A program made the translations under genes and the position numbers. Below the pieces are notes generated by a model. That model saw nothing but the letters and a program-made list of their open reading frames with translations, did no database searches and was not told where the DNA came from. Shown one piece after another: positions 43,369 through 53,047 of a stretch of 55,474 nucleotides of DNA; the first letter of the stretch is position 1; every line of letters begins with the position of its first letter. The DNA lies in the IMG/VR virus record IMGVR_UViG_3300037993_000105, positions 1 through 55,474 of that record, one strand, 5' to 3'. This stretch comes from a virus.

Positions 43369-45426
43369 ATGAGTTTGAACGAAGAGCTACTGAAGAGCGC
43401 CGAAGACGCTCTATCACGAGGGTTCGCAATATTGACTTGCCTCCCTCACGACAAAGCCCCATGGGCCAGCTACTCGCCTAACGCGTGTCACTCCGCGTCC
43501 CGAGTTCCTGAGATCGCCCTCAAGGCATGGCATGATGGCACTGAGGCCAACTACGGTGTGGGATGCGAGACCAGCGGAATCACGGTACTCGACGCCGACC
43601 ACGGTCTGGCTAATTACGAAGAGTTTGTCGCGTGGCGGACGGAAAACAATCTTCCGCCAACATACACTGTACGTACAGGACGCCGCAAGAACAAGACGAC
43701 CGGCGAGCCTGAGTACGGCATTCAGATGTACTACTCCAAGGCAATTCCCACCACAGCATTCAGTATTGGAAACGTCACTGGTGAGTTGAAGGGCAAGGGT
43801 GGGTATGTTTGCGGGGCCGGAAGTGTTCACCCCGACAGCGGTGAGAAATACGAAATTCTCGAAGACATTGACATTGCCCCGCTACCTGAAGGGCTTCTGA
43901 TTTTTGAAAAGAAGAAACTGGAGTACACGCCGAAATCCGCGGGCGGCGAGCTGATCCCTGCGGGAAGCCGATGGATACACTGTCAAAGCATGGCGGGAAA
44001 ACTCCGCAACATGGGGATGGACCGCGACGGCATTTATGCTGGTCTCAAGAACTTCCTCAAGAACAATTGCGAAGACGGAGAGAACTACCCGGATGACAAG
44101 ATTCAGAATCTCGCCGACGCCGCTGTCACGAAGTTCGACGCCGCAGAACTGACGCCCGTCATCACATTCGGCGGCAGCAACAAAAAGATTGACAACTCGA
44201 TTGCCAACCTCCCCGACGAATTACTCGAAGGTGATTGGATTGGAGAGATGACACACGCTCTGGCTGATGGGACACACATCCCGCCGTCATTCGTGCGCGC
44301 CACAATCAAAGCGGTGCTTGGTGCCTCACTTGATGGCATGGTTGGTTTCCCGCACCACCCCGACCTGCACATGCGCAATTACAGCTTCCTGATCGCCCCC
44401 GGCGACTCTGGTAAGGGTGAGTCTTGGAAGCGCGTCAGTAAATACGGAATGGCAAACTATATTGAGAAGGCTGGTATCTTCATGGGTGACCCCGGATGGT
44501 ATTCGTCCGGAGAGTTCCTTGTCAAGAAGTTCGTCGAGAACGGTCTGGAAGATCGTCGTGTCGTGACGCACTTCGATGAGATGCGTTTGTTGTTCGAAAA
44601 GGGCGCAGGTCAAAACTCAACACTCAATACGAGAATGCTCAATTTGTACGATGGCGCAGAAATATCCGCGGGGAGTTGCACGAACGCAGGCGGGACTGTC
44701 AAGAACGTCAGCGTCACGATCACAGGCGGCTTCACCAAAGAGTCATTCACTCGCGCGCTGAGTGGCAAGGCGCTTGGTGACGACGGCTTCCTGTCACGAT
44801 GCGTGCTGTCCTATGTCGAGAAGCCTGCAAAGGTTGGTGACTGGGATGACATGAACCCCGAGATTGTAAATCCGATACAGCAGAAAATGCTCGACCGCTG
44901 GACAAGTCTTTCTACGATGTTTGGGACGCCCGGCGCGGGACCACATATCCCGACCGAGACCGATGCGGCGAAGGAACTGCGATTGGAATTCGACAAGTGG
45001 CTTCATGCGGAGATGGATGCGGATTCTGAATTCGGGCACCACTTTTGTGGCAGACTCGACTCGCATTTCAAGCGCGATCTTCTACTCCGTACATTATTTT
45101 CTGAAGACCCGAATGTGATTACAGAGGCGCAGGTCAAGAAGGCTGCTGATTGGGCCGCGCACGAACTGATGCTGCGAAGAGAGATATGGCCCGCCGATCA
45201 GGTCAGCCCTGTATCTCAGATGTGCACACTAATTTCGAAGGCGTTCAAGAAAAAAGAGAACATCACCAAGATGCGTGTCATAGATTTTTGCAATGTGAAC
45301 CGCGACGGCACTCATGATGAATTTGGGCGTGCTTGGAAGGCAATGCTGACAAACGGAACGGTGTATTTGGTTGGTAAGACACACAAAAAGACTGATATTT
45401 TTGCGATGAAGGGGGAAAATGATTGA
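43369..45426 (+). CDS. Primase-polymerase/helicase-type replication protein (685 aa)
   Basis: The N-terminal 190 residues match the bifunctional primase-polymerase (AEP) domain: metal site GITVLDADHG (about 70-79), a YGIQMYY segment near 117 and GGYVCGAGSVHPDSGEKYEI. In the usual motif II (GG.H.Y) the His is replaced by Gln, and the acid of motif III is not obvious. Residues about 300-500 form a P-loop ATPase of the DUF3987 type: Walker A GDSGKGES at 343-350 and Walker B THFDEM near 400. It would prime and unwind phage DNA. It lies between ssb and the polymerase gene. Confidence 0.8.
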   Translation: MSLNEELLKSAEDALSRGFAILTCLPHDKAPWASYSPNACHSASRVPEIALKAWHDGTEANYGVGCETSGITVLDADHGLANYEEFVAWRTENNLPPTYTVRTGRRKNKTTGEPEYGIQMYYSKAIPTTAFSIGNVTGELKGKGGYVCGAGSVHPDSGEKYEILEDIDIAPLPEGLLIFEKKKLEYTPKSAGGELIPAGSRWIHCQSMAGKLRNMGMDRDGIYAGLKNFLKNNCEDGENYPDDKIQNLADAAVTKFDAAELTPVITFGGSNKKIDNSIANLPDELLEGDWIGEMTHALADGTHIPPSFVRATIKAVLGASLDGMVGFPHHPDLHMRNYSFLIAPGDSGKGESWKRVSKYGMANYIEKAGIFMGDPGWYSSGEFLVKKFVENGLEDRRVVTHFDEMRLLFEKGAGQNSTLNTRMLNLYDGAEISAGSCTNAGGTVKNVSVTITGGFTKESFTRALSGKALGDDGFLSRCVLSYVEKPAKVGDWDDMNPEIVNPIQQKMLDRWTSLSTMFGTPGAGPHIPTETDAAKELRLEFDKWLHAEMDADSEFGHHFCGRLDSHFKRDLLLRTLFSEDPNVITEAQVKKAADWAAHELMLRREIWPADQVSPVSQMCTLISKAFKKKENITKMRVIDFCNVNRDGTHDEFGRAWKAMLTNGTVYLVGKTHKKTDIFAMKGEND

Positions 45427-48345: not shown

Positions 48346-48582
48346 GTGGAGGGCTATGGTTCCACTTGCGTGGCTGACCTCAAGAACGATGTTCAATGCC
48401 AGAAACTGGCGCAAGGTGTGCTGCGAATCTGGGCTAGCAGGAAACGCAGCAGGAACATTCGGGCCATGCAAGTGGGACCGTACGCCCCTATCGTAAGTTA
48501 TTGCAGTATGAAGTCGCAGGCTTGGTTGTCGGACGGCGGTTACCATGGAAGACTTGAACAGGAAAAGAAAACGTCAGCGTGA
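48346..48582 (+). CDS. Doubtful small ORF (78 aa)
   Basis: GTG at 48346 without a clear ribosome site; it overlaps the start of the HNH gene by 38 bases. The reading frame has ordinary residue use (VADLKNDVQCQKLAQGVLRI). The DNA also contains a 7-bp hairpin TGCTGCG/CGCAGCA. It may be either a small gene or an untranslated leader. Confidence 0.25.
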   Translation: MEGYGSTCVADLKNDVQCQKLAQGVLRIWASRKRSRNIRAMQVGPYAPIVSYCSMKSQAWLSDGGYHGRLEQEKKTSA

Positions 48583-48985
48583 GTGGGTTGCTAAGCGACG
48601 AAAGAATTGGTTTGCCGCTAATGGCCCTTGCAGGGGGTGCGGCTCTTCGGAGAACCTAGAGATGCATCACATTGACCGCACTGAGAAGGAAGAACACAGA
48701 ATCTTTTCTTGGTCTAAAGCAAGGCGGGAAGTAGAGCTGGTGAAGTGTGTCGTGCTTTGTCATAGCTGCCACCGTAAAGAAACAAATAAGCAGGTTGGTA
48801 CGCGGAGACCTGTTAATCACATTCATGGCACACAGACAGAATACCGTCGTGGATGCAGGTGCGAACCCTGCCGTACTGCAAAGTACGAAGCCATCAAACA
48901 TGAGCGTATGAAGAAACAGGCGACGGTTGCGGACTCGGGTTCGAATCCCGACATCTCCACTGAGGGCACTATCTCAGTGTCCTGA
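48545..48985 (+). CDS. HNH endonuclease overlapping the tmRNA gene
   Basis: This 146-residue protein has CRGCGSSENLEMHHIDRTEK, a W.S..R..E helix and KCVVLCHSCHRKE: the HNH zinc pairs C..C and C..CH around the catalytic HH. Then comes GTQTEYRRGCRCEPCRTAKY, a DNA-binding tail seen in phage endonucleases. The natural end of the family is near residue 125. The frame happens to stay open through the acceptor piece of the tmRNA to 48985. Ribosome site weak. Probably a homing endonuclease. Confidence 0.75.
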   Translation: MEDLNRKRKRQREWVAKRRKNWFAANGPCRGCGSSENLEMHHIDRTEKEEHRIFSWSKARREVELVKCVVLCHSCHRKETNKQVGTRRPVNHIHGTQTEYRRGCRCEPCRTAKYEAIKHERMKKQATVADSGSNPDISTEGTISVS

Positions 48986-49226
48986 GTGGGGATGAAAGGC
49001 GTTCGACGCAGCTGGTTTGTTTGTTTTCGACGTTCCGCACTGACGTGGCTGGCGTAAAATAGACACGTAAACCAATAAATGCTACGACTGAAAAGCCGAA
49101 GGCATTTGCTGCTACTGCCGGAAGGTAGTGAGTAGCTGGGGCGGTCAGAAGCCTAGCAACAGAATATCTGACCACGGGCCGGGAATTCAGTACCGTCAAT
49201 ATCCGGTTTCCTGATAGACCGGCCCG
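48911..49226 (+). ncRNA. ssrA: Circularly permuted (two-piece) tmRNA
   Basis: The acceptor piece comes first: P2 3' strand CGGTTGC (48924-48930), the tmRNA-typical GGAC, T-arm TCGGG-TTCGAAT-CCCGA (48935-48951), acceptor strand CATCTCC and discriminator A (48959); CCA is not encoded. After a hairpin spacer (CACTGAG/CTCAGTG), the coding piece starts at 48988 with GGGGATG, pairing all 7 acceptor bases with a G3.U70 wobble (the alanine identity pair), then GGCGTTCGACG of the D-like loop and P2 5' strand GCAGCTG (49008-49014). A pseudoknot-like ACGTG/CACGT pairing precedes AATAAAT and the resume codon GCT at 49081. The tag reads ATTEKPKAFAATAGR. Later stems are GGTCAGA/TCTGACC and CGGGCCGG/CCGGCCCG. 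Confidence 0.85.
49081..49128 (+). other. tmRNA tag reading frame
   Basis: Fifteen codons from GCT to TAG, preceded by U at -5 and A at -4 as in known resume sites. The peptide ends TAGR rather than the usual LAA/VAA protease signal. Confidence 0.6.
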
Positions 49227-49244
49227 TACAAATTTAGGAGAGGT

Positions 49245-49439
49245 ATGTTAGAGTGGAGGCACGATGTTAAGATCACTGTCGTCCAGTCCGGCGAAGATCA
49301 TGGCACTGCTCATGGCTTCGGAGAGTTTCATTGCAGCGATCTTATATCTCGTGCAAGGGGATGTAAGACACGCTTGCTATTGGGCCTCGTCGGCCTGTAT
49401 CATCTTATCTGTGACGCTGTGAGGAGGAACATAGTATGA
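49245..49439 (+). CDS. Small hypothetical protein (64 aa)
   Basis: AGGAGAGG precedes ATG 49245; its stop overlaps the next ATG (ATGA). It begins MLEWRHDVKITVVQSGEDHG and contains a hydrophobic segment RLLLGLVGLYHLICDAV. It starts about 19 bases after the last tmRNA stem. Function unknown. Confidence 0.5.
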   Translation: MLEWRHDVKITVVQSGEDHGTAHGFGEFHCSDLISRARGCKTRLLLGLVGLYHLICDAVRRNIV

Positions 49440-52036: not shown

Positions 52037-52134
52037 ACACGATTATTTACTTGACAAGTTTTATCCCACATGCAATACTGTTCCTGTTGTTAATCGAAAA
52101 CCGCCTGACTAGCGGCTTAGGAGAATCCAAATGA
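52033..52134 (+). CDS. Membrane microprotein (33 aa)
   Basis: GTG at 52033 (GTGA overlap) follows GAGGAGG. One hydrophobic helix: NTIIYLTSFIPHAILFLLLI. It ends as ATGA at the next gene. Function unknown. Confidence 0.45.
   Translation: MNTIIYLTSFIPHAILFLLLIENRLTSGLGESK
52051..52079 (+). promoter_or_regulatory. Candidate internal promoter
   Basis: TTGACA, 17 bases, AATACT, inside the microprotein gene. The -35 and spacing match the other phage promoters, but the -10 is weaker. Confidence 0.4.
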
Positions 52135-52592
52135 AAAAGCAACTGACCGCCGAACAACTGACCGCGCTGCAAACTTACGCCTCGGAGCATGGGCGCAACT
52201 GGAAGTCCGCTCTTCACGATTCGTGGATGACCGGGAATTATGACGGTTCCGTCGATGCAGGACCGTTGCAGCAAATTCGCAACACTTTCGGCCCTACTTG
52301 GCTGGTCCGTTTCAACCTCAAGAAGGCCGCTGCCGACACTCAGCATCCGTTGAGCGGGAACAGACCGGGGAATCCCATACTCAAGGCTATGGATAAACTG
52401 GTCGAGGAAGCCGAGATCGAAAACCCAGTCTTTGACGACCTGAAAGGAGCGGCCAAGATGCTTGACCAAGCATTGAGCCGCCTCCATCCCTCGCTCGAAC
52501 TTTACAAGGACATCAAGAAAGTGGATGAGCAATTGGACTGTGTTCGCCTGTCGCTCGAAGAAGGCGACTACTACAGCCAGAGGGAGCGGTGA
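52131..52592 (+). CDS. Conserved phage protein (153 aa)
   Basis: TTAGGAGA precedes ATG 52131. The opening LTAEQLTALQTYASEHGRNW and KSALHDSWMTGNYDG pattern is one I have seen in many phage genomes. The C-terminal half is helical with acidic patches. No function known. Confidence 0.6.
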   Translation: MKKQLTAEQLTALQTYASEHGRNWKSALHDSWMTGNYDGSVDAGPLQQIRNTFGPTWLVRFNLKKAAADTQHPLSGNRPGNPILKAMDKLVEEAEIENPVFDDLKGAAKMLDQALSRLHPSLELYKDIKKVDEQLDCVRLSLEEGDYYSQRER

Positions 52593-52595
52593 GCC

Positions 52596-52814
52596 ATGAT
52601 CCGCACAGCGAAGGTTCTTTTCTGTGATAACGAACACGGCATCGGCAACCGCACCTTCCCAGAGATGGGCCGCGTCGATGACCAGACTTTCATTGAGCCG
52701 ATGAGCGCAGCACAGTTGCGCAAAAAGGCGAAGGTCGAAGGGTGGACTCGGGTAGATGGAGTGGACTATTGCCCGGACTGTTCGTATGTGGACCCGCTTA
52801 ACTTCGCCAGGTGA
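52596..52814 (+). CDS. Small zinc-site protein (72 aa)
   Basis: It begins MIRTAKVLFCDNEHGIGNRT and ends with DYCPDCSYVDP: Cys/His ligands at both ends suggest a knuckle. FPEMGR and AAQLRKKAKVEGW suggest an actinophage-style small protein. GGGAGCGG precedes the start. Confidence 0.55.
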   Translation: MIRTAKVLFCDNEHGIGNRTFPEMGRVDDQTFIEPMSAAQLRKKAKVEGWTRVDGVDYCPDCSYVDPLNFAR

Positions 52815-52858
52815 CCTGTGATCCACTTTCATTCGCGGAACTCGTCAGGTAAATAATC

Positions 52859-53047
52859 GTGACTGTGAAAACACTTTTACTGCACGACTCTCTCAACCCG
52901 GCCCGCATCGTCCCGATGGACCCCGCGGACTTCTCGATTGCTGTCCCGTACATGACAGGATCACTGGTGTACGCCAAGGGTAACGATCAACCTGTTATGG
53001 TCCACGAGACCCCTGAAGATATTGCTATCATGCTGGAGGCGGAATGA
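52859..53047 (+). CDS. Small hypothetical protein (62 aa)
   Basis: GTG at 52859; weak ribosome site (AGGT). Alpha/beta pattern: TVKTLLLHDSLNPARIVPMD, ETPEDIAIMLEAE. ATGA overlap with the next gene supports it. Confidence 0.5.
   Translation: MTVKTLLLHDSLNPARIVPMDPADFSIAVPYMTGSLVYAKGNDQPVMVHETPEDIAIMLEAE

What the first reader, a model, noticed from the sequence alone, without database searches (positions are those of the whole stretch)
48911..49226. Phage-encoded circularly permuted tmRNA
A tRNA-like 3' half (GGAC, T-arm, CATCTCC-A) precedes a tmRNA-like 5' half (GGGGATG...GGCGTTCGACG). The halves form a 7-bp acceptor stem with a G3.U70 pair and a 7-bp P2 in the correct geometry; a tag frame, the -5U/-4A resume context and downstream stems are present. 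Normal tmRNAs have the opposite order; permuted genes are known from a few bacterial lineages. Its presence in the replication arm suggests the phage handles stalled ribosomes or retags proteins during infection.
Basis: partly seen in the sequence, partly recalled or inferred. Interest (0 to 1): 0.9.

Follow-up and report, generated by a model that had tools for sequence, protein, structure and literature searches.

The report
Phage permuted tmRNA with odd tag
A phage related to viruses of Acidobacteriota carries a real two-piece ribosome-rescue RNA (tmRNA) whose halves are encoded in swapped order; such genes are already known in phages, but here one recurs across a group of related phages and this phage's copy encodes an unusual peptide tag.

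Summary
Rfam's permuted-tmRNA model matches 48902-49122 (71.9 bits, cut-off 47) and ARAGORN calls a permuted tmRNA. Of 37 records reached through the DNA polymerase, 32 were searched and 13 carry one over the cut-off, including the isolated Acidobacteriota phages Tunturi_3 and Tunturi_4, where it is not annotated. Across ten lineages the acceptor and T-stem, and a post-tag hairpin in six, are kept by compensatory changes. It looks like a retained gene that borrows host SmpB (SmpB in 0 of 22 records). Phage permuted tmRNAs are already published (Melnitz, PMC9004378), so this is a new member of a known kind. Two features stand out: the tag ATTEKPKAFAATAGR ends in Arg, while the nine other lineages' tags end in Ala and 60 of 62 distinct viral tags end in Ala or Val; and homing-endonuclease-like genes lie near the tmRNA in up to five of ten lineages. 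Function is inferred; nothing was tested in cells.

The parts
48902..49173 (+). permuted tmRNA gene, part shared with relatives (precursor)
   Evidence: RF04321 48902-49122 71.9 bits; ARAGORN 48870-49219; post-tag hairpin to 49173
48902..48959 (+). 3' piece (acceptor piece): P2b strand 48902-48907, P2 strand 48925-48931, T-arm 48935-48951, acceptor 3' strand 48952-48958, discriminator A 48959; CCA not encoded (next bases CTG)
   Evidence: sequence, pairing; 54 of 119 viral stretches of the pattern scan also lack an encoded CCA
48960..48987 (+). intervening segment, presumably removed in the mature two-piece RNA
   Evidence: 28 nt between the halves; the cleavage is inferred from known permuted tmRNAs
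48988..49173 (+). 5' piece (coding piece): acceptor 5' strand 48988-48994, UUCGA 49002-49006, P2 49007-49013, P2b 49030-49035; 3' end not known
49081..49131 (+). tag reading frame ATTEKPKAFAATAGR with stops TAG TGA; resume codon GCT
   Evidence: identical in the near-twin contig
49143..49173 (+). post-tag hairpin, 7-bp stem GGTCAGA/TCTGACC, loop with CCTAGCAACAGAA
   Evidence: loop motif in 8 of 10 lineages; a like element ends the alpha_tmRNA model
49174..49227 (+). 9-bp hairpin ACGGGCCGG/CCGGCCCGT after the tmRNA, role unknown
   Evidence: read directly from the sequence
48545..48985 (+). HNH endonuclease ORF upstream, reading into the 3' piece and spacer
   Evidence: phrog_4234 E 4e-32 over residues 5-126; ORF end 48985; no Pfam family at E 0.001

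Best explanation
The phage makes its own two-piece tmRNA. A single precursor is cut by host tRNA-processing enzymes at 48959 and 48988 (inferred from known permuted tmRNAs). The two pieces stay paired through the acceptor and P2 helices, the host adds CCA and charges the RNA with alanine (G3.U70 present), and host SmpB delivers it to stalled ribosomes. The ribosome switches to the GCU resume codon, adds ATTEKPKAFAATAGR and stops at UAG UGA. The most likely benefit is recycling of ribosomes stalled on broken mRNAs during infection. Shown here: the gene, its fold, its recurrence in related phages and the absence of a detectable SmpB in those searched. Inferred: expression, processing, charging, tagging and benefit.
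For: RF04321 and ARAGORN matches. 13 of 32 related records searched carry the gene over the cut-off. In the DNA polymerase tree a clade of 11 rows (support 100/99) holds 8 with the gene; the other 3 are contigs that end about 0.3-1.7 kb downstream of the polymerase. In 8 of 10 lineages the gene lies about 0.5-4.2 kb downstream of the polymerase on the same strand (the 4.2-kb case assumes a circular record). Acceptor paired in 70 of 70 cells with two-sided changes at 3 of 7 positions and G3.U70 in all ten; T-stem 50 of 50, 5 of 5 positions; post-tag hairpin 36 of 36 in six lineages. -4 A in 10 of 10. All ten have an open tag frame with a stop, frames set by hand. SmpB in 0 of 22 records, found in 10 of 14 control genomes.
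Against: No expression or processing data. The window's tag lacks the Ala or Val end that 60 of 62 distinct viral tags have. P2 in ungapped register is incomplete in 5 of 9 lineages scored. Strands for P2b and the hairpin were picked for pairing, the T-stem was required to pair by the search expression and the acceptor was scored by pairing, so those counts lean towards structure. P2b has 4 of 60 cells unpaired. Over all 22 tree rows the label 'carries tmRNA' needs 6 changes and 98 of 500 shuffles do as well.
Confidence: 0.62

Rival explanations
1. Reprogrammed tag: the RNA rescues ribosomes, but its tag, extended past the ancestral stop by Gly-Arg, no longer marks proteins for ClpXP-type proteases, so tagged proteins survive or go elsewhere.
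For: Nearest relative in the polymerase tree (the MAG contig FNV, 49% identity) has AETKPLAFAAAA*; the window's frame runs on as AFAATAGR**. Tags of the 9 other lineages all end in Ala. The tag is identical in a 99.85-99.97% identical contig.
Against: That LAA-like ends are needed for degradation is recalled, mainly from E. coli; proteases of Acidobacteriota were not examined. One lineage only.
Confidence: 0.2
2. Decoy: the RNA mainly ties up host SmpB or ribosomes and blocks host trans-translation.
For: No SmpB found in the phages (0 of 22). A tag-less tmRNA of phage DS6A inhibits the endogenous tmRNA in E. coli (passage of PMC11915505).
Against: All ten lineages keep an open tag frame and the -4 A, which a decoy would not need.
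Confidence: 0.08
3. Relic or hitch-hiker: the gene is a decaying passenger carried by homing endonucleases.
For: HNH-like genes lie near it in up to five of ten lineages. The window lacks an encoded CCA, which the 8 other lineages found by the search expression have, and the stop that FNV has after AFAAAA.
Against: Complete acceptor, T-arm and hairpin pairing with compensatory changes; lack of encoded CCA is common in viral copies, 54 of 119; presence in 8 of 8 clade members whose contigs reach past the site.
Confidence: 0.07
4. Chance tRNA-like sequence or a plain tRNA gene.
For: General tRNA likeness of the T-arm; a weak mascRNA match at 20 bits.
Against: E 6.4e-12 over the window and matches in relatives. 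Standard-form RF00023 is over its cut-off in 0 of 32.
Confidence: 0.01

Closest known systems
Permuted tmRNA of Methylophilales phage Melnitz and other phages (PMC9004378, passages seen)
   Same: Phage-encoded two-piece tmRNA with swapped halves in a phage whose host is not an alphaproteobacterium; the window's post-tag hairpin is of alphaproteobacterial type. That paper counts 53 two-piece among 133 unique phage tmRNA structures
   Different: 50 of those 53 were from marine or aquatic samples, while the two isolates of the present group come from Arctic soil (sources of the IMG/VR contigs were not looked up); no riboswitch family is over its cut-off in the window; tags here run from 12 to 36 aa
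Rfam RF04321 tmRNA_permuted (PMC11915505, passages and part 1 of 2 of section 12)
   Same: Over the gathering score in the window and in 13 of 32 related records
   Different: The model's base pairs cover the tRNA-like domain only; the window scores below the cut-off of the clade model RF01850 (69 of 84), while L179 and L180 pass RF01849 (59.9 and 51.4 of 50)
tmRNA genes of Bradyrhizobium elkanii phages (PMC12656738, passages seen)
   Same: tmRNA in virulent phages that also carry DNA polymerase A
   Different: The passages do not state the gene form; hosts are Bradyrhizobium
tRNA-adjacent HNH endonucleases of mycobacteriophages (Lukilu, LilhomieP, Myrna)
   Same: Related HNH protein, 43-46% identity, coding end or match end overlapping a tRNA gene edge
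   Different: In the window the neighbour is a permuted tmRNA and the ORF reads through its 3' piece

Membership tests
permuted (two-piece) tmRNA | covariance-model match over the curated cut-off | tested here: met
   RF04321 71.9 bits, cut-off 47
permuted (two-piece) tmRNA | 3' half before 5' half with a spacer | tested here: met
   28-nt spacer, ARAGORN tmRNA*
permuted (two-piece) tmRNA | 7-bp acceptor with G3.U70 for alanyl-tRNA synthetase | tested here: met
   7/7 pairs; G-U at position 3 in 10 of 10 lineages
permuted (two-piece) tmRNA | P2 helix joining the pieces | tested here: met
   7/7 in the window; incomplete in 5 of 9 lineages in ungapped register
permuted (two-piece) tmRNA | tag reading frame with resume context and stop | tested here: met
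   GCT at 49081, -4 A, TAG TGA
permuted (two-piece) tmRNA | tag ending in small hydrophobic residues (ALAA-like) | tested here: not met
   ends AGR; a usual trait (60 of 62 distinct viral tags end in A or V), not a formal requirement: the family also holds forms without a tag
permuted (two-piece) tmRNA | precursor cleaved into two RNAs | not testable with these tools
   needs Northern blot or RNA-seq
permuted (two-piece) tmRNA | works with SmpB | not testable with these tools
   no phage SmpB in 22 records; the host would have to supply it
alpha-type permuted tmRNA (RF01849) | best clade model over its cut-off | tested here: inconclusive
   window fits RF01850 best at 69 of 84, yet has the alpha-type CCTnGCAACAGAA hairpin

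The most novel reading that the evidence does not exclude
A lineage of Acidobacteriota-type phages has kept its own permuted tmRNA since its common ancestor, moved or guarded by homing endonucleases, and in this phage the tag has been rewritten by loss of the ancestral stop so that ribosomes are freed without sending the nascent protein to the usual protease: a phage-made rescue RNA with a non-degradative tag.
Probability: 0.18. Interest if true: 0.72.

Novelty: new member of a known kind. Interest (0 to 1): 0.45.

Why it matters
The use of phage tmRNAs is not known. Here the gene recurs in one phage group that includes two cultured viruses with cultured hosts, so deletion, RNA mapping and tag assays become feasible. 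The varied tags (12-36 aa) and the odd Arg end offer a natural test of whether phages use tmRNA for ribosome recycling, for protein turnover or for something else.

Tried and rejected
DNA-level search for relatives of 48850-49300 in 50,697 phage records found none. The primase-like protein 43369-45426 found none. Standard one-piece tmRNA was rejected: RF00023 over cut-off in 0 of 32. SmpB was sought and not found in 22 records, namely the window plus 21 of the 32; fragments, near-copies and the MAG were left out. An RF-1 domain (ArfB-like) gene exists in 4 of the same 22, beside the tmRNA in Tunturi_4, but not in the window. From 37 polymerase-related records, one search was given 32; L155, L156, L157, L159 and L160 were left out. 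In one search, run at E up to 1, weak matches ring in 13 of 14 control genomes, 1 over the cut-off, so only matches over the cut-off were counted. Missing CCA as a sign of decay was rejected (54 of 119 viral stretches lack it). A general link of HNH genes with viral tmRNAs was not found: 0 of 80 distinct loci within 400 bp by a regex that misses some HNH types, control 2 of 818 positions; tblastn with seven HNH proteins over 119 loci found only the twin contig near a tmRNA and one weak match in L021, about 1.7 kb from its tmRNA. The tRNA adjacency of the HNH family is not universal: of the relatives fetched, L163 has no tRNA in its 3.3 kb and in L165 the nearest is about 330 bp away. Pfam gave no family for the four neighbouring HNH-like ORFs tested nor for the window's; two of the four have PHROG matches, and those of L180 and L172 were called HNH-like by motif alone. 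Whether Acidobacteriota themselves have one-piece or permuted tmRNA could not be tested: no genome handle for that phylum was obtained. As a partial stand-in, in the phylum of the MAG that holds the FNV contig 14 of 148 genomes match RF04321 at E 0.001 but only 1 is over the cut-off, and that match is the phage contig; the MAG's binning was not checked. Papers: PMC9004378, PMC11924767 and PMC12656738 were seen in passages, PMC11915505 in passages and part 1 of one section; other papers only as search listings. PMC11924767 has 0 occurrences of tmRNA in its main text. A search for the phrase 'phage-encoded tmRNA' gave 0 papers.

Full report
What is there. The window is a 55,474-base virus record. 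Rfam finds one family over its cut-off in it: tmRNA_permuted RF04321 at 48902-49122, 71.9 bits against 47, E 6.4e-12. ARAGORN independently reports a permuted tmRNA at 48870-49219. The resume codon GCT at 49081 has -5 U and -4 A. I add a helix 48902-48907/49030-49035 and a post-tag hairpin 49143-49173 whose loop, CCTAGCAACAGAA, resembles the element that ends the alphaproteobacterial model.

Which phage. The terminase is 47.9% identical over its whole length to that of Tunturiibacter phage Tunturi_3; the next listed record has 25.9% (8 of 78 records listed). The DNA polymerase is 38% identical to Tunturi_3 and 36% to Tunturi_4. A phosphoesterase lies downstream of the tmRNA in the window, in Tunturi_3 and, read by eye, in the FNV contig. 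So the window is a distant relative of phages of Acidobacteriota; its own host and sample source are not known to me.

The gene in related phages. Relatives reached through an alignment of three polymerases gave 37 records in all; 32 were searched whole and 13 of 32 have RF04321 over the cut-off. One of the 13 is a near twin of the window (99.85-99.97% identical over the aligned pieces) and four look like copies of one virus (same score and ARAGORN result), leaving nine lineages plus the window. Tunturi_3 and Tunturi_4 are among them; no tmRNA is annotated in the copies held here and their paper's main text does not use the word. In a polymerase tree of 22 rows the window pairs with the FNV contig (100/100), inside an 11-row clade (100/99) in which 8 rows carry the gene; the other 3 are contigs that stop 0.3-1.7 kb after the polymerase. 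Over all 22 rows the trait is not significantly clustered (98 of 500 shuffles as low), so ancestry is argued for that clade only. In 8 of 10 lineages the gene follows the polymerase within about 4.2 kb; in G015 and Tunturi_4 it lies about 26 and 31 kb away.

Constraint. Over ten lineages the acceptor is paired in 70 of 70 cells with two-sided changes at three of seven positions, the T-stem in 50 of 50 with changes at all five, P2b in 56 of 60, and the post-tag hairpin in 36 of 36 over six lineages; no shuffle of 1000 reached any of these. P2b and hairpin strands were chosen for pairing, the T-stem was required to pair by the search expression, the acceptor was scored by pairing, and the shuffles ignore relatedness, so these figures are an upper view. 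The Rfam alignments, made with an outside model, place the acceptor and T-arm in the same register in the nine of ten lineages whose alignments I viewed (G005 was not shown). For the hairpin, four lineages were dropped before the count: Tunturi_4 and G015 lack the loop motif, and the stems of G010 and G009 were unclear.

The tag. Tags read from the resume codon, with frames set by hand, are: window ATTEKPKAFAATAGR, FNV AETKPLAFAAAA, G004 ANEETLAMEAAA, and 26-36 aa in the seven others, among them ANTVTSTIRNVASVRTGFFRSAEPITNRYAVAA in Tunturi_4. ARAGORN missed three of these genes and read another tag in G010. Nine of ten end in Ala; the window ends in Arg. In the pattern-scan set 60 of 62 distinct tags, as ARAGORN reads them, end in Ala or Val; the two others are this tag, from the twin contig, and one unusually placed call that may be wrong. 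The comparison with FNV suggests loss of a stop after AFAATA and extension by Gly-Arg.

Neighbours. Directly upstream is an HNH endonuclease (phrog_4234) whose ORF runs into the 3' piece. Its relatives in mycobacteriophages Lukilu, LilhomieP and Myrna, 3 of 161 matching records, sit at the edge of tRNA genes; other relatives do not all do so (L163, L165). Other lineages have other HNH types near their tmRNA: phrog_99 HNH just upstream in G004, phrog_2255 HNH about 600 nt downstream in G010 (where a tRNA gene lies nearer), and HNH-like ORFs recognised by motif alone in FNV (upstream) and G006 (downstream, with an in-frame stop). Other viral tmRNA loci did not show this. In Tunturi_4 an RF-1-domain protein, the class of ArfB-like rescue factors, ends a few bases before the tmRNA.

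How it works. By established knowledge of tmRNA, the RNA should be cut into two pieces, charged with alanine and used with host SmpB. None of 22 records searched has SmpB, while the same search rings in 10 of 14 control genomes. The phage most likely uses the RNA to clear ribosomes during infection. Whether the Arg-ended tag still leads to proteolysis is the open and most interesting point.

What is known. Permuted tmRNA genes in phages are published: the Melnitz paper counts 53 two-piece structures among 133 unique ones in 402 phages, 50 of the 53 marine or aquatic (passages). The tmRNA database paper lists 79 bacteriophage sequences. Hence 'new member of a known kind'. I saw no mention of a tmRNA in Acidobacteriota phages in the listings or in the passages; several of those listings were cut, they cover only the held open library, and no search was made for an Arg-ended tag.

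Noticed in passing
window 48756-48758; L002 11134-12342: A near-identical contig has a 1.2-kb insertion carrying most of an AAA ATPase ORF (PF00004, phrog_3757) inside the HNH gene, with a 3-base overlap at the junction; the window has the HNH gene intact.
   Followed up: partly
window 52052-52861: About 0.8 kb present in the window and absent from the near-identical contig.
   Followed up: no
PP885687 43532-44293 (L193): In Tunturi_4 an RF-1-domain release-factor-like gene and the un-annotated permuted tmRNA are adjacent: a possible two-part ribosome-rescue cassette.
   Followed up: partly
L124, L125, L126: HNH endonucleases of one family in three mycobacteriophages overlap or abut tRNA genes, in both orientations.
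   Followed up: partly
L006, L057, L064, L070, L020, L058: Viral permuted tmRNAs with long tags (27-29 aa) ending in LAV that share a TVSGKN-like core.
   Followed up: no
L169 (Tunturi_3 region): Rfam finds two tRNA matches just downstream of the Tunturi_3 tmRNA, one of which ARAGORN reports with a four-base anticodon call (gaaa).
   Followed up: no
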